DNA from: Kiritimatiellia bacterium
Lineage (GTDB): Bacteria; Verrucomicrobiota; Kiritimatiellia; UBA8416; JABMPJ01
Direction: 5' to 3'
Assembly: GCA_030745755.1 (NCBI GenBank)
Contig: JASLOA010000004.1
Coordinates: 92,970 to 156,969 of the forward strand
DNA length: 64,000 nt
Positions 17,774-62,175 of this stretch are shown here, piece after piece; position 1 is the first letter of the stretch, and each line of letters begins with the position of its first letter. A program made the position numbers and the translations under genes. The notes beneath the pieces are model-generated. The model saw nothing but the letters and a program-made list of their open reading frames with translations, searched no databases and was not told the DNA's origin.

Positions 17774-17815
17774 AAGAGCGCCGAAATGGACAAGGGAAGA
17801 GCCTAAGAGATATGC

Positions 17816-17897
17816 GTGTAGGAGTACGTGTACGAGTACGGGAAGAAGAGAGCAAGGATTGCCAGATCCCCCCTTACTCGTACACGTACTCGTACAC
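17816..17897. repeat. Inverted-repeat cassette A (6-nt unit arms, GTGTAC/GAGTAC)
   Basis: Left arm 17816-17840 GTGTAGGAGTACGTGTACGAGTACG; right arm 17873-17897 is its reverse complement with 2 mismatches; 32-nt centre. Confidence 0.85.
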
Positions 17898-18046
17898 TCG
17901 AATCTCTCCATTTCCGAGTGGGGCTCAGAGGGAACAAAATGGGGGCGAACGGTCTATGTGCCGTAACCCCTTGATAAACAGCGGGTACAGGACTCAAGAG
18001 TGTAGAGGCTCTTGACATAACCGATTTAAAGAAGAAGGGGACAGAA

Positions 18047-32539: not shown

Positions 32540-32590
32540 AGATCATTAGGGGAAGAAGGAACACTAGCATCCCATAGTGGGAGGGAACTA

Positions 32591-32776
32591 ACCACGGAGG
32601 CGCGGAGGCACAGAGGATAGTCGTACGAATCCGTCGGCGTGGAATACCACGCCATAGGATTCGCACGACATTGCCATGGGAGGGGAAAAGAGGGATAGGC
32701 GGCGAACGTTTGGGCCGAAAGGCGGTCCGTTCGCCCTCCAATTCCGTATTTGTCTCCTCCGATCCTCCGAGCCTCT
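32591..32776. repeat. Inverted-repeat cassette C (8-nt units CGGAGGCR) with strong internal hairpins
   Basis: Left arm 32591-32617 ACCACGGAGGCGCGGAGGCACAGAGGA; right arm 32754-32776 TCCTCCGATCCTCCGAGCCTCT region; internal hairpins 32620-32669 and 32701-32735. Confidence 0.75.
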
Positions 32777-32887
32777 AGCGAAGCGGGTGGTGAATTCTGG
32801 AATTGGGTTTCTGTGTTGGATGCCGAAAACATTAGCAAAGTCGGGTGTTCGAGGGGCGATATCATGGCTTATGGATGAGGAATGCAG

Positions 32888-36365: not shown

Positions 36366-36437
36366 CAATATGTCCCGCTCATTACCCATTCAGAATAGCG
36401 AAGAACCTTACAGAACAAGTCTTTACCCCAGCAAAAC

Positions 36438-36526
36438 TGGAGTAATGGAGTCTTGGAGTACTGGATTTGGAGAGCTTGCTTCGCAAGCGTCTTCTCTGGC
36501 AATACTCCATAACTCCAACACTCCAA
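36438..36526. repeat. Inverted-repeat cassette E (8-nt units TGGAGTAN)
   Basis: Left TGGAGTAA-TGGAGTCT-TGGAGTAC-TGGA; right ATACTCCATAACTCCAACACTCCAA; central hairpin GCTTGC-TTC-GCAAGC at 36474-36488. Confidence 0.82.
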
Positions 36527-36743
36527 GATGCTTCCGCATGTCGACCGATGAAAGTGTAGATGTTTCAGGTCAAGCTCCAGAAAGCTTAACAACGCAGAAT
36601 CCTCAAAGCATCCCTCCCTTGCGCATAACCGTGCAATCGCGTAACGTGGCTGCTCTTGAATTGTTCCTATGCTGTCACAAGCGCTGTCCGGCGTGGGGTG
36701 GTCATGGCTTGAGCCCGTATTGAGAGGGCAGGAGGATCATTAG

Positions 36744-55075: not shown

Positions 55076-55163
55076 CTTTTGGTATTTCGTCATTGAATGG
55101 CACGGATCATAGGCGTTTGGCATTCGCAAAGAACGTTATGTAGTGCCATTCGGGGCTTGTGTC

Positions 55164-56246
55164 ATGTGGAAACAGAATTGGAGTGAGACAAAGCAGCACT
55201 TTGCGGGCTGGTGGGGCCAGGAGGGACTGGTCCTTCGCCTGCGGGGCAGAGCGTGCCCCGGCGAGCCGCACGAGGAGACCGTGGCACCGCCGCCACCGAC
55301 ATCGATTCGTGATGGCTTCGTGAACGCCGGGCCACGCGCACAGCGCAGCCATCACAGGCTTGCGCACCACTGTTTCCCCGCCGACGCCCTGCCTGTCTCA
55401 TATACCGACATCGGGCCGGGATCTCTTGCGCTTTTCCTGGGGGCGGAGCCTGGCTTCTCCAAGGATACCGTATGGTTTGAGCCGTGTATCCACGATTGCG
55501 ACAGTCCGGAGGAGCTGCCTCCCTTCCGTTTTGATGAGGCAGCCCCCTGGTGGCAGACAACCGAAGCCATCGTGAAGGCTGCGGCAGCACTCGCCAAAGA
55601 CAAGTACCTCGTGGGATGTCCCGACCTGGTCGAGAACATAGATATCCTCGCGGCGCTTCGCGGCACGCAGACGCTCCTGGTGGATATGATCGAGAGGCCT
55701 GGCTGGGTCGAGCAGAAGGTGGCGGAAATCAACCAGGTCTGGTTCGACGCCTACCAGCGGATATATGACATCATCAAGCTGGAAGACGGTAGTTCCACTT
55801 TCGGTGCCTTCGGTATCTGGGGCCCGGGCAAGACGGCCAAGCTCCAGTGCGACGCATCGGCCATGTTCTCGCCTGACATGTTCCAGCGCTTTGTCGTCCC
55901 CAGCCTGACCGAACAATGCGAATGGCTCGACTACTCGATGTATCACCTGGACGGAACCCAGGCCATGTGCCACCTGGGTGCCCTGCTGGATATCGACGCC
56001 CTCGATGCGATCGAGTGGACCCCCGAGAGCGGCATTGAAGGTGGCGGTGAGTCACGCTGGCATGACCTTTACCGGAGGATCCTGGATGCAGGCAAGTCGG
56101 TCCAGGCCATTGGCGTAGGCAGAGACCAGATTTTGCCGCTGCTTGACGCGGTAGGTGGCAAGGGCATGTATATCGCGGCGGACTTCGCCATCGACAGCGA
56201 ACGGGATGGCGAGGCGCTCGCAGCACTCGTTGAGCCGTACAGGTAG
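55164..56246 (+). CDS. Uroporphyrinogen-decarboxylase-superfamily protein
   Basis: MWKQNWSETKQHFAGWWGQEGLVL, ALRGTQTLLVDMIERPGWVEQKVAEINQVW, MYHLDGTQAMCHLGALLDIDALDAIEWTPESG. Confidence 0.78.
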   Translation: MWKQNWSETKQHFAGWWGQEGLVLRLRGRACPGEPHEETVAPPPPTSIRDGFVNAGPRAQRSHHRLAHHCFPADALPVSYTDIGPGSLALFLGAEPGFSKDTVWFEPCIHDCDSPEELPPFRFDEAAPWWQTTEAIVKAAAALAKDKYLVGCPDLVENIDILAALRGTQTLLVDMIERPGWVEQKVAEINQVWFDAYQRIYDIIKLEDGSSTFGAFGIWGPGKTAKLQCDASAMFSPDMFQRFVVPSLTEQCEWLDYSMYHLDGTQAMCHLGALLDIDALDAIEWTPESGIEGGGESRWHDLYRRILDAGKSVQAIGVGRDQILPLLDAVGGKGMYIAADFAIDSERDGEALAALVEPYR

Positions 56247-56325
56247 TGCCGCCCCAAACGTGTGTGCGTAAGGCGAACAAATGCAGCGAGCAGTAAATAG
56301 AGATCAGAAGAGGGAGGCGAAAGCT

Positions 56326-57360
56326 ATGAAACCACGCGACATCATTCTCAGTCAGATCAATCATCAAGAAACCGATCTGATTCCTTACACACTGCCGATA
56401 GACAACGGGCTTGGCGAGAAGCTCGACGCGCACTACGGCAACGCACAATGGCGGGATCGACTGAAGCCCTTCATGCAGAACGTGAACGTCGTGGATACCA
56501 TGAAGGGCATGTGGGATAATTGTGAGTCCAACTTGAACCGCGATTTGTACGGAACACTCTGGCGCACAGACCTTCGGCCTCTGCATATGGAGGAGCCCGC
56601 CCTGAAAGAGCCAACATTTGAAGGTTACGATTGGCCTGAGCCCTCCAAGTTCATCGCAGACAAAGAGGGCGTGGCCGCACAGCGTACTATTTGTGACGAG
56701 AACAAGGACGACAAATTCATTATTACGAGCCTGGGCTGGGGCCTGTTTGAGTCTAGCTGGGGTATGCGCGGCTTTGAGAACGTGCTCATGGATGTTGCCG
56801 CCGAGCCGGAGTTCTTTGAAGAGCTGCTCGACAGGCTCACCGAACAAATCCTGGCGTACATTGAGTTCACGTGCAAGTCGCTCCCTGACATCGACGCGAT
56901 CTTTTTCGGCGATGACTGGGCCGATCAGCGCGGCGTCATTATCGGGCCCGAGCGCTGGCGCCAACTGTTCAAGCCCAGGTATGCCCGGATCTACGAGGCG
57001 GCCCGCGCGCATGGCAAGATCGTGATGTCGCACTGCTGTGGCTCTACGGTTGATATCCTGGACGACATGATCGAGATCGGATTGGATGTCTACGAGAGCG
57101 TACAGCCCGAAGCACGTGACATGAACCCCTACGAACTGAAGAAGAGATGGGGTGACCAGATCACGTTCTGGGGGTGCCTTGGCTCACAGAGCACCATACC
57201 GCGTGGAACGCCCGCCGAAATCCATGCCGAGGTCAGCAAGCTGCGGCATGAGATGGGCAAGGGCGGTGGCTACATTCTTGCTCCGGCCAAGCCTCTCCCG
57301 ACAGAGACACCCCTCGAGAATGCCGTTGCGATTGTTGAAGCCTTTACAAGTGATGAATAG
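56326..57360 (+). CDS. Uroporphyrinogen-decarboxylase-superfamily protein (MtaA/CmuA-like)
   Basis: MKPRDIILSQINHQETDLIPYTL, IFFGDDWADQRGVIIGPERWRQLFKPRYARIYEAARAHGKIVMSHCCGSTVDILDDMIEIGLDVYESVQPEARDMNPYELKKRWG. Confidence 0.85.
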   Translation: MKPRDIILSQINHQETDLIPYTLPIDNGLGEKLDAHYGNAQWRDRLKPFMQNVNVVDTMKGMWDNCESNLNRDLYGTLWRTDLRPLHMEEPALKEPTFEGYDWPEPSKFIADKEGVAAQRTICDENKDDKFIITSLGWGLFESSWGMRGFENVLMDVAAEPEFFEELLDRLTEQILAYIEFTCKSLPDIDAIFFGDDWADQRGVIIGPERWRQLFKPRYARIYEAARAHGKIVMSHCCGSTVDILDDMIEIGLDVYESVQPEARDMNPYELKKRWGDQITFWGCLGSQSTIPRGTPAEIHAEVSKLRHEMGKGGGYILAPAKPLPTETPLENAVAIVEAFTSDE

Positions 57361-57381
57361 ATAGATGAAGAGGAAGTGCTG

Positions 57382-58635
57382 ATGACAGCGAAGGATAAGC
57401 AACGGCTCAGGGATCTGGCCGGCAAGTACGCAGAATACGCCTTCGGCGAAACGATGAACGAGCGGCGCGAGAAGTGGCGCCTTCACAATCGGTTGCAGGA
57501 GAAGACCTTTCCTTTTCACATCGAGGACAACGGTTCCTACTTCAGCGATCTGACGCCGCCACTCGAGTGTGAGGACGACCGATGCAGACAGCTCGAAGGG
57601 CGACTGCTCCATACCTTGACCGCCTACGAAATGATCAATGACGACCGCATCATTCCCGATCGGTTCATCGTTGACTGGCGTACTTCCATGACCAGCATCT
57701 GCGACGAACTCAACATCAGGCATGCCGACAACGGGCAAGGGAGTTCGTTGGGTTACGAGACCAACAGGCCGATCGCCGACATTGACCGTGACATGGGAAA
57801 GCTGAAGAAGCGCGAGATCTCCCTCGATGCAGAGGAGACAGATCGCCACGCAGAGCTTGCCAAAGAAGTGTTTGCTGGGCTACTGCCGGTCGAGGTCGGT
57901 CGGCCAAGCTCACTCTACTCCCATGGTATCACCAACAAGGCCGTAGATCTCATGGGCATGGAGGGGCTCTATCTGCAGATGGCGATGAATCCTGACGCCG
58001 TGCATCGCCTCTTCGGGTTTCTGGCCGAGGACAACCTTGCCCTCGGTCAATGGGAAGAGGACCAGGGCCTCTTGACACTGAATCACGACGGCAACCAGGG
58101 CTACTGTTCCGGCAGTTCCCTCTTCTCTGACGAGACCTCCACGGCAGCGGGCGAACAGGTTGTCTCAACGGATCGTTACGGGTACCTCGAGTCTCAGGAA
58201 TCAGCAGGCGTCTCCGCCGATATGTTCGACGAATTCCTGATGCCACATTTCAGCAAGCTCGCTGCCAAGTTCAAGCTCCTGAAGTTCGGTTGCTGCGAAG
58301 CGGTTCACAACCTGATGCCCGTTCTCAAACGGCTTCCCGGCCTGCGTAAAGTGAGCGTGACGCCCTGGTGTGACCTTGATGTTCTGGTCGAGACCTGCCC
58401 GGCCGACATTATCTGGTGCCGGAAGCCGATCCCGTTGAAACTATGCGGCACTACCTTCGATCCGGACGATCTGCGTGCGCATTTGCAGGAGACACTCGAT
58501 AGAGGCGCGAGCCACTTCATCGAGTTCGTGTACCGCGACACCAATCTGCTTACGGGAGAGATGACAGACCGAGTCGCACAAACATGCGATATGATTCGCG
58601 ACCTGACCGGCCGTCCCGAGGGAAGTCGACACTAA
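57382..58635 (+). CDS. Uroporphyrinogen-decarboxylase-superfamily protein
   Basis: MTAKDKQRLRDLAGKYAEYAFGETMNERREKWRLHNRL; GCCEAVHNLMPVLKRLPGLRKVSVTPWCDLDVL. Confidence 0.72.
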   Translation: MTAKDKQRLRDLAGKYAEYAFGETMNERREKWRLHNRLQEKTFPFHIEDNGSYFSDLTPPLECEDDRCRQLEGRLLHTLTAYEMINDDRIIPDRFIVDWRTSMTSICDELNIRHADNGQGSSLGYETNRPIADIDRDMGKLKKREISLDAEETDRHAELAKEVFAGLLPVEVGRPSSLYSHGITNKAVDLMGMEGLYLQMAMNPDAVHRLFGFLAEDNLALGQWEEDQGLLTLNHDGNQGYCSGSSLFSDETSTAAGEQVVSTDRYGYLESQESAGVSADMFDEFLMPHFSKLAAKFKLLKFGCCEAVHNLMPVLKRLPGLRKVSVTPWCDLDVLVETCPADIIWCRKPIPLKLCGTTFDPDDLRAHLQETLDRGASHFIEFVYRDTNLLTGEMTDRVAQTCDMIRDLTGRPEGSRH

Positions 58636-61114: not shown

Positions 61115-61192
61115 GGGGGGCATGAATAGACAGTGTCGTGTGGGGTTTGCGTGGCGCTCCGTGTAGGGTTGTCTGCCCTGAGTGGACCGATT

Positions 61193-61300
61193 GACGAGGA
61201 TCGGGACGAGGATCGAGACTAAGATGGGAGGGACGAGGATCGGGACTAAGATCGGGACGAAGATGGGGGAGACGAGGATCGGGGAGACGAGGATGGGGAG
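61193..61300. repeat. Left array of GACGAGGATCGG-type 12-15 nt units
   Basis: GACGAGGATCGG, GACGAGGATCGA, GACTAAGATGGGAG, GGACGAGGATCGG, GACTAAGATCGG, GACGAAGATGGGGGA, GACGAGGATCGGGGA, GACGAGGATGGGGA read directly. Confidence 0.92.
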
Positions 61301-61308
61301 GCTTTAAG

Positions 61309-62073
61309 GTGGGACCAGTAGTGTTGGGACATGAGAAGCTGCGTGTATATCAGCGGGGGCTGGATTACGCGTCCTGGACGCATTCGGCGCTTGCCAACAT
61401 CGAGCAGTCGGCGGCGGTGCTTGATCACTGGGATCGGGCGGCGGAAAGCATCGTCGAGAACTTGGCCAATGGAAACAGTCGTCACGCAGCAGCCGATAGA
61501 AATCGGTTCTTCGATGTGGCCTTCGGGTCGGCGCTGGAATGTGCGGCTTGCCTGGATATCTGCGCGTGTAAGAAGCTGATCACGGTTGAGCGGCAGGTCG
61601 AAGGGAAAACTGCGCTCCAACAGATTGTCAATATGACCATCGGTCTGCGGAGATCTCGTAGCTCATTCGTGAAAGAGGAGCGCGAAGAGTACATCGTACG
61701 CCAAAACCATGACATCTTCTTCGCTCACGAGGGCTTGGACGTCTACCAAGTTGCGCTGAAATTGATTGTCTGGCTCGACGGAGTTCTTGATATCACTGAC
61801 CTTGGTGCATCGTATGCAACACGATTGGATAAGTGGACTACGAGCCTGGTGCTGAACATCGCAGAGGGGAATGGCCGCTTCAGTGAAGCCGATCAGGTAC
61901 GGTTCCTCGACATTGCACACACAAGTGCCATGCGGGTAGCTGCGTGCCTTGACCTTCTGGTGGCAAGGCACCAGGTTCAGGTATCCCAGATTGAGGACGG
62001 CAAGCAGATCCTCGCAAGAATCGTTCCGCTGCTGCTGGGTTTGAGAGGGTATCTGGATAAACAGACGGATTAA
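61309..62073 (+). CDS. Tandem-duplicated four helix bundle protein (S23/IVP-like family)
   Basis: Two homologous halves: LRVYQRGLDYASW...ENLANGNSRHAAADRNRFFDVAFGSALECAACLDI and LDVYQVALKLIVW...LNIAEGNGRFSEADQVRFLDIAHTSAMRVAACLDLL. Confidence 0.85.
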   Translation: MGPVVLGHEKLRVYQRGLDYASWTHSALANIEQSAAVLDHWDRAAESIVENLANGNSRHAAADRNRFFDVAFGSALECAACLDICACKKLITVERQVEGKTALQQIVNMTIGLRRSRSSFVKEEREEYIVRQNHDIFFAHEGLDVYQVALKLIVWLDGVLDITDLGASYATRLDKWTTSLVLNIAEGNGRFSEADQVRFLDIAHTSAMRVAACLDLLVARHQVQVSQIEDGKQILARIVPLLLGLRGYLDKQTD

Positions 62074-62101
62074 GGATGATGACGAGATCGCAGTCTGAAT
62101 A

Positions 62102-62175
62102 TCGTCGTCTCGATCTTCGTCTCGATCCTCGTCGGGCTCATCTTCGTCTCGATCCTCGTTCCGATCGTCGTCGAC
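62102..62175. repeat. Right array of ATCYTCGTCTCG-type units, inverted relative to 61193-61300
   Basis: ATCGTCGTCTCG-ATCTTCGTCTCG-ATCCTCGTCGGGCTC-ATCTTCGTCTCG-ATCCTCGTTCCG-ATCGTCGTC. Confidence 0.92.

What the first reader, a model, noticed from the sequence alone, without database searches (positions are those of the whole stretch)
61193..62175. IVS-like cassette: two-domain four-helix-bundle (S23) gene enclosed by inverted arrays of a 12-nt unit
Seen directly: about 8 units of GACGAGGATCGG on the left and about 6 units of its reverse complement (ATCCTCGTCTCG) on the right, immediately bracketing a single ORF made of two tandem S23/IVP-like four-helix domains. Established knowledge: 23S rRNA intervening sequences (e.g. 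Leptospira, Coxiella) are stem-forming inserts with inverted termini that sometimes encode an S23 four-helix protein, and the DGR accessory protein Avd has a related fold. Inference: this is an IVS-like selfish or mobile element living outside rRNA, between a sulfatase and a sialidase gene.
Basis: partly seen in the sequence, partly recalled or inferred. Interest (0 to 1): 0.88.

Follow-up and report, generated by a model that had tools for sequence, protein, structure and literature searches.

The report
Mobile S23 gene with inverted-repeat-array ends
A small gene for a four-helix-bundle protein is carried, here and in bacteria of many phyla, inside a tiny mobile DNA element whose two ends are mirror-image arrays of a short repeated word, and the length and wording of that word follow the protein family, which points to an undescribed way for genes to spread.

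Summary
Confirmed and general. The window holds a 254-aa two-domain S23 protein (PF05635) between inverted arrays of a 12-nt unit; the arms score 51 against 12 (sd 2.3) for shuffles. All four S23 loci of this genome have inverted short-unit arrays, each with its own unit. In related genomes about 79% of 87 S23 loci exceed the 95th percentile of a mismatched-flank null (19.1); the 90th percentile of control genes is 18. Unit length follows the protein family: 7 nt (6-8) for one-domain S23, 12-13 nt for two-domain S23, mostly 8-10 nt for an unrelated nuclease-like family (GxxExxY) that turned up in control DNA. Unit sequence follows protein subfamily across phyla.

These are mobile elements. Cyanobacterial plasmids show filled and empty sites at about 98% identity: a 428-bp insertion, arrays at its termini, a 5-bp target duplication. 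The window's cassette recurs in other neighbourhoods in two congeners. Gene-less inverted arrays with the same arms accompany the S23-bearing copy in two of the four genomes that hold one. S23 is under purifying selection, and insertions are sense-oriented in operons (96:9).

Best reading: an IVS-like, RAYT/REP-like element in which S23 recognises its arrays. The enzyme that moves it is unknown.

The parts
61137..62175 (+). whole S23 cassette (about 1.04 kb)
   Evidence: blastn to the copies in two congeners ends at 61137/62175 (G003, L051) and 61136/62174 (G001, L037); no further homology in the stretches compared
61137..61192 (+). left terminal segment outside the array, shared with the copies in G003 and G001
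61193..61300 (+). left array of the 12-nt unit GACNANGATCNN; 61193-61264 is the conserved arm (three units, linker, three units)
61309..62073 (+). two-domain S23 / four-helix-bundle protein gene (254 aa, GTG start)
   Evidence: PF05635 1.2e-26 and TIGR02436 5.8e-23; dN 0.054, dS 0.598 against the G003 copy
61333..61638 (+). S23 domain 1
   Evidence: profile built here, 4.1e-28
61732..62028 (+). S23 domain 2
   Evidence: 1.1e-14
62101..62173 (-). right array, inverted copy of the arm
17815..17898 (.). gene-less inverted 12-nt array (CGTGTACGAGTA), hairpin; the same unit flanks two-domain S23 genes in G001 (L033) and G015 (L088)
   Evidence: DNA fold z = -8.2

Best explanation
The feature is one copy of a small mobile element, an S23 cassette: inverted arrays of a short unit as termini, one S23 gene inside. 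Shown: it is inserted as a unit, with the arrays at or near its ends and (in a cyanobacterial copy) a 5-bp target duplication; it lies preferentially in sense orientation between genes of an operon; the protein is under purifying selection; unit length and sequence are tied to the protein subfamily; gene-less elements with the same arms occur in some genomes that also hold the S23-bearing copy. Inferred: the S23 protein, a ring of four-helix bundles like XCC0516 and Avd, binds the array with about one domain per 6-7 nt; in the transcript or in single-stranded DNA the two arrays pair into a long stem with the gene in the loop; protein bound to the arms steers insertion of the element and, in trans, of gene-less arrays, much as RAYT proteins are thought to spread REPs. 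In RNA the stem is probably cut by RNase III as in 23S rRNA IVSs, which lets operons tolerate the insert. The strand-transfer enzyme is not identified; it is either S23 itself or a host or transposon enzyme.
For: Own genome: 4 of 4 S23 loci bracketed. Related genomes: median inverted-flank score 26 in 87 S23 loci against 12 in 66 control genes; both arms with arrays of the same period in 51 one-domain and 11 two-domain loci and in 66 loci across phyla, against 3 of 475 random positions. Periods: one-domain 6-8 nt in 50 of 54, two-domain 12-14 in 12 of 14 with the other two scored 6, Fisher p = 2e-8. Array similarity rises with protein identity, strand-specifically, while far flanks stay nearly flat up to 85% identity; S23 clades and units agree. 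Insertion: T. variabilis plasmid C against N. linckia and Aulosira plasmids, 428 bp, flanks overlap by exactly 5 bp, GTAAT; reciprocal insertions in Nostoc ATCC 53789 plasmids; the window's cassette at other positions in G003 and G001. Gene-less copies with identical arm architecture: two in this genome, five in G001, which also has one S23-bearing copy; G003 and G008 have the S23-bearing copy and no strong gene-less one. Sense:antisense in codirectional neighbours 96:9, p = 2e-19; control genes 31:16. GU-type exceed AC-type mismatches in the sense strand, 245:173, p = 5e-4. dN well below dS in close comparisons. Fold: 2gsc, 2rld, Avd 4dwl, DGR RNP 8ub7.
Against: No transposase, integrase or RT ORF in the cassette. 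Only one target duplication is clean; TTCTA at a second site overlaps the array's own letters, and other empty sites show none that is clear. About a quarter of loci lack detectable arrays, including several Balneolaceae S23 genes of the cross-phylum set (L222, L240, L247, L250). Binding of arrays by S23 is untested. The sense bias could reflect selection for expression rather than an RNA step. G002 has gene-less arms of the family without a detected intact S23 partner of that clade.
Confidence: 0.68

Rival explanations
1. Passenger model: the hairpin-ended cassette and its gene-less relatives are moved by an unrelated transposase in trans (for example a Y1/HUH enzyme, as for IS200/REP), and S23 is cargo or a modulator.
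For: Y1 transposase genes were found in all 8 S23-bearing genomes tested; hairpin ends are the usual Y1 substrate (established knowledge of IS200/IS605); the cassette has no recognisable transposase.
Against: Unit length and sequence track the S23 protein, which a passenger would not explain; a 5-bp target duplication is not expected of IS200-type insertion (established knowledge); Y1 genes also occur in 5 of 14 control genomes, where S23 was not found.
Confidence: 0.25
2. Retroelement model: S23 works as Avd does, partnering a reverse transcriptase in trans, and the cassette moves by an RNA intermediate.
For: Fold match to Avd and to the DGR ribonucleoprotein; sense orientation and GU-type bias; group II intron RT on T. 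variabilis plasmid C near its cassette.
Against: No RVT_1 match in G016 and G036 (92% and 96% complete), which have 8 S23 matches each; template and variable repeats were not looked for.
Confidence: 0.12
3. The arrays are host-made repeats (regulatory hairpins or STRRs) and S23 genes merely settled between them.
For: Heptamer STRRs and inverted heptamer arrays are abundant without S23 in cyanobacteria and Xanthomonas (PMC2670836, PMC4692102).
Against: Empty sites lack arrays; S23 genes of 64-84% identity in many phyla share a unit; unit length differs between protein families inside one genome.
Confidence: 0.06
4. A purely RNA-level IVS-like insert: the arms serve only for RNase III excision, and spread is by vertical descent and ordinary recombination.
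For: The predicted RNA fold pairs the arms; Coxiella's 23S IVS has heptamers ahead of S23 and RNase III excision (PMC4990558); GU bias.
Against: Clean insertion with target duplication; the same cassette at different loci in congeners; gene-less families.
Confidence: 0.1

Closest known systems
23S rRNA intervening sequences (IVS) with an S23p ORF (Coxiella, Leptospira)
   Same: S23 gene inside a stem with inverted termini; about 430 nt; Coxiella's IVS has heptamers (GACAGAT) just before the S23p start (PMC4990558); described as selfish.
   Different: Here the element sits between protein genes, both ends are arrays, gene-less relatives exist, unit length depends on the protein, and the protein is under purifying selection instead of decay.
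REPIN / RAYT systems (REP-associated tyrosine transposases)
   Same: One gene flanked by inverted repeats and, in some genomes, gene-less copies of the same ends scattered about.
   Different: RAYTs are Y1/HUH enzymes and REPs are single palindromes with a tag; S23 has no known catalytic motif and the ends are tandem arrays.
DGR accessory protein Avd
   Same: Four-helix-bundle fold; Foldseek matches 4dwl_D (TMt 0.82) and 8ub7_B.
   Different: No RT or template repeat in the cassette.
Cyanobacterial STRR heptamers and Xanthomonas GGGAATC repeats
   Same: Short-unit arrays, often as inverted pairs between genes (PMC2670836, PMC4692102); TCAGRAN arrays of the cross-phylum S23 subfamily are abundant in Sphaerospermopsis (659 hits, 4 for the control pattern).
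   Different: In the passages read, those papers do not connect the repeats with S23 or with a mobile S23 element.
MITEs
   Same: Short gene-less elements with inverted ends, next to a coding relative.
   Different: Termini are arrays whose unit length is specific to a small non-transposase protein.

Membership tests
S23 / PF05635 protein family | Profile score above the curated cut-off | tested here: met
   93.4 bits against 33.8; TIGR02436 81.2 against 24
S23 / PF05635 protein family | Four-helix bundle fold | tested here: met
   eight helices, mean pLDDT 69; best matches 2gsc and 2rld, TMt up to 0.91, though Foldseek E is only 3e-3 for the two-domain model
S23 / PF05635 protein family | Homopentamer | not testable with these tools
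   2gsc and 2rld have five chains; no complex was predicted for the window protein
23S rRNA IVS | Located within rRNA | tested here: not met
   no Rfam match in the window or in 20 sampled loci; flanked by sulfatase and sialidase-like genes
23S rRNA IVS | Inverted termini forming a stem around the insert | tested here: met
   sequence and predicted fold
23S rRNA IVS | RNase III excision | not testable with these tools
   needs RNA data
REPIN/RAYT | Y1/HUH transposase encoded by the flanked gene | tested here: not met
   the only Pfam hit of the protein is PF05635
REPIN/RAYT | Gene-less copies of the flanking repeat in the same genome | tested here: met
   G000 (2) and G001 (5); not found at comparable strength in G003 and G008
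DGR (Avd) | Adjacent reverse transcriptase with template and variable repeats | tested here: not met
   no RT in the cassette; RVT_1 not found in two S23-rich genomes; the repeats themselves were not searched for
DNA transposon / MITE | Target-site duplication at a filled site compared with an empty site | tested here: met
   GTAAT, 5 bp, one clean site compared with two empty plasmids; not testable for the window's own copy
DNA transposon / MITE | Encoded or identified transposase | tested here: not met
   none in the cassette

The most novel reading that the evidence does not exclude
A new class of mobile element in which a small non-transposase protein (a ring of S23 bundles, or a PD-(D/E)XK protein of the GxxExxY family) is itself the mobility factor: it reads a tandem array whose unit length equals its binding footprint (about 7 nt per S23 domain, 12-13 nt for the tandem-domain form, about 9-10 nt for GxxExxY), and the inverted arrays act as ends. 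This one principle would also account for many unexplained short-unit repeats of bacteria, including cyanobacterial STRRs.
Probability: 0.35. Interest if true: 0.95.

Novelty: new variant of a known kind. Interest (0 to 1): 0.86.

Why it matters
S23/IVP proteins have been known since the rRNA intervening sequences but have no assigned function, and heptamer repeats such as STRRs have been recorded in cyanobacteria and Xanthomonas without an agreed origin. The two appear to be halves of one mobile system. If S23 recognises its arrays, the questions of what S23 does and where these repeats come from become directly testable. Such insertions also account for S23 genes lying inside cas and conjugation operons, which could otherwise be read as functional association.

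Tried and rejected
Chance or simple low complexity: rejected by shuffles, control genes and random positions. 'Inverted arrays everywhere': the scan of 404 kb found 13 candidate pairs, several of them spurious, and none in shuffled DNA. Viral origin: no relative of the window protein in viral contigs; no phage record matched a one-domain S23. Known RNA: no Rfam match. Defence system: no PADLOC match. Empty site for the window's own copy: none found; only one congener has a sialidase relative, at 49% identity. The cross-phylum mismatched-flank null is uninformative because the loci share one unit; replace it. The last Fisher value used a control count read off percentiles and is not relied on.

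Full report
1. The left array (61193-61300) and the inverted right array (62101-62172) of a 12-nt unit flank one ORF, 61309-62073, which is a two-domain PF05635/TIGR02436 protein. The arms are 81 nt, ungapped and 81% complementary, with a 3-nt phase shift at the same place in both. The arm score of 51 compares with 12.1, sd 2.3, max 23 in 2000 Markov shuffles.

2. It is not a singularity. The genome has four S23 loci, and all four have inverted short-unit arrays, each of a different unit: ACTGATN (7 nt), GAGGTCG-like (7 nt), CTTTGTCGCGAG (12 nt, around what looks like a frame-shifted gene) and the window's unit. In 38 related genomes, 34 have S23. For 87 loci the median left-versus-inverted-right score is 26; for 66 control genes it is 12 with a 95th percentile of 20; 79% of S23 loci exceed the 95th percentile (19.1) of mismatched flank pairs. 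An independent measure, arrays of the same period on both sides, gives 51 one-domain, 11 two-domain and 66 cross-phylum loci against 3 of 475 random positions.

3. Unit length follows the protein family. One-domain S23: 7 nt (33), 8 (13), 6 (4) of 54. Two-domain S23: 12 (7), 13 (4), 14 (1), and 6 (2, where 12 scores nearly as high) of 14. A scan of control stretches made without regard to genes hit an inverted array around a GxxExxY gene (TIGR04256, PF13366 PD-(D/E)XK). Of 29 such loci, 22 have inverted flanks above the null's 95th percentile, with periods 9 (7), 8 (3), 10 (2) of 15. Fisher p for one- versus two-domain is 2e-8, and for one-domain S23 versus GxxExxY at 9-10 nt 9e-8. Related loci are not independent, so these p values overstate the strength.

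4. Unit sequence follows the protein subfamily. A one-domain S23 from a congener has relatives of 64-84% identity in records named as Bacillota, Desulfobacterota, Acidobacteria, Lentisphaerae, Cyanobacteria, Bacteroidota, Chloroflexi and others, many with the same heptamer, TCAGRAN. Across all pairs, similarity of a left array to the inverted right array of another locus rises from about 9.5 below 35% protein identity to 20.0 at 75-85%, while the wrong-strand control reaches 12.1 and far flanks 11.0. In the highest bin (above 85%) the far flanks also rise, presumably because some of those pairs are orthologous loci. Two-domain clades match their units: L003, L051, L037 and L066 with GACNANGATCNN, L033 and L088 with CGTGTACGAGTA, L043 and L044 with GATTAAGTAG-type.

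5. The elements move. Plasmid C of Trichormus variabilis ATCC 29413 has a 428-bp S23 insertion relative to N. linckia NIES-25 plasmid2 and Aulosira plasmid3. The flank alignments overlap by exactly GTAAT, and the inserted DNA begins AAATCAGAATTCAG and ends CTCCTGAGTTCTTCTTT, so the arrays are the termini. The same site is filled in Scytonema NIES-4073 and holds what looks like a decayed copy in Nostoc C052 pC052_E. Nostoc ATCC 53789 plasmids pNsp_a and pNsp_c show reciprocal insertions of two different S23 cassettes at adjacent junctions of the same operon, one with a TTCTA duplication that overlaps array letters, the other with no clear duplication and some extra nucleotides beyond the array. 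Picosynechococcus PCC 7003 has S23 between cas10 and cmr3 where PCC 7002 has none, and Anabaena sp. 90 has one between cas6 and cas4 where Dolichospermum has none.

6. The window's own cassette moved within the genus. Homology to the copies in G003 and G001 stops at 61137/62175 and 61136/62174; the G003 copy lies beside an ORF that looks like an ammonium transporter (by eye), and G003 has no match to the sialidase. Between the window's copy and those in G003, G001 and G008 dN is about 0.05-0.19 and dS 0.6-1.7; among most cyanobacterial plasmid copies dN/dS is about 0.1. The protein is under purifying selection.

7. Gene-less relatives. The same arms, three units, linker, three units of GACNANGATCNN, surround short spacers instead of S23 at two other places in this genome and five in G001. 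With a profile of the arm, the strong matches outside the genus are at one S23-bearing locus in G008; G003 has only its S23-bearing copy; G001 and G000 have one S23-bearing copy plus gene-less ones; G002 has weaker gene-less arms. In Sphaerospermopsis the TCAGRAN array pattern occurs 659 times (4 for the reversed control), with 7 S23 matches. One-to-many is thus shown in some genomes, not in all.

8. RNA or DNA? Where both neighbours run the same way, S23 is sense in 96 and antisense in 9 (control genes 31:16); gene calls here were heuristic. Mismatches in the sense-strand stem lean to GU over AC, 245:173, significant on its own only for the GxxExxY loci. The predicted transcript folds with the arms paired. 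This favours a stem in the sense RNA, though selection for expression could also give the orientation bias.

9. Mechanism. The S23 fold resembles the Avd fold; the solved S23 proteins have five chains. One-domain arms have mostly 4-5 units of 7 nt. I infer that the protein binds its array about one domain per 6-7 nt and steers insertion, in trans as well for gene-less copies. Catalysis is unassigned: the cassette has no transposase; RT was not found in two S23-rich genomes; Y1 genes are present in all eight tested but are common and would not be expected to make a 5-bp duplication.

10. Known or new. The pieces are known: S23 in rRNA IVSs, with heptamers before S23p in Coxiella (PMC4990558), STRR hairpins (PMC2670836), inverted GGGAATC pairs (PMC4692102). 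I found no paper in the open library that links S23 or GxxExxY to inverted arrays or describes the free-standing element; subscription papers and preprints were not searchable.

Noticed in passing
L113:5548-6232 (G010); L114-L143: GxxExxY (PD-(D/E)XK_3) genes are also bracketed by inverted arrays, with units of mostly 8-10 nt and about three units per arm; in this genome (L114) the unit is CACGGAGG-like.
   Followed up: partly
window 32590-32780: Gene-less inverted CACGGAGG-type arrays around two inner hairpins; the unit resembles that of the genome's GxxExxY cassette (L114) and of L105:7181-7504.
   Followed up: partly
window 36437-36527: Gene-less inverted 8-nt array (TGGAGTNN) with an inner GCTTGC..GCAAGC hairpin.
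   Followed up: no
L166-L168, L171, L175 (G000, G001): Gene-less 12-nt-array elements: several share a central hairpin (GATGCGGACGG..CCGTCCGCATC) and an outer segment near CTTCCGG..TCCGGGTGTTTT, like a MITE family.
   Followed up: partly
L261 and L262: S23 cassettes inserted inside CRISPR operons (cas10|cmr3; cas6|cas4), which may explain the reported CRISPR association of the 23S rRNA IVP family (PMC10910872, figure legend) as insertion rather than function.
   Followed up: partly
L043, L044 (G001): Each flank of these two-domain S23 genes itself contains arrays in both orientations, a nested palindrome.
   Followed up: no
L222, L240, L247, L250 (Balneolaceae): S23 genes of the cross-phylum subfamily without recognisable arrays; three of them share similar flanking sequence: possibly domesticated.
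   Followed up: no
window 55143-58635: Three consecutive ORFs that resemble uroporphyrinogen-decarboxylase-type methyltransferases (by eye, not searched).
   Followed up: no
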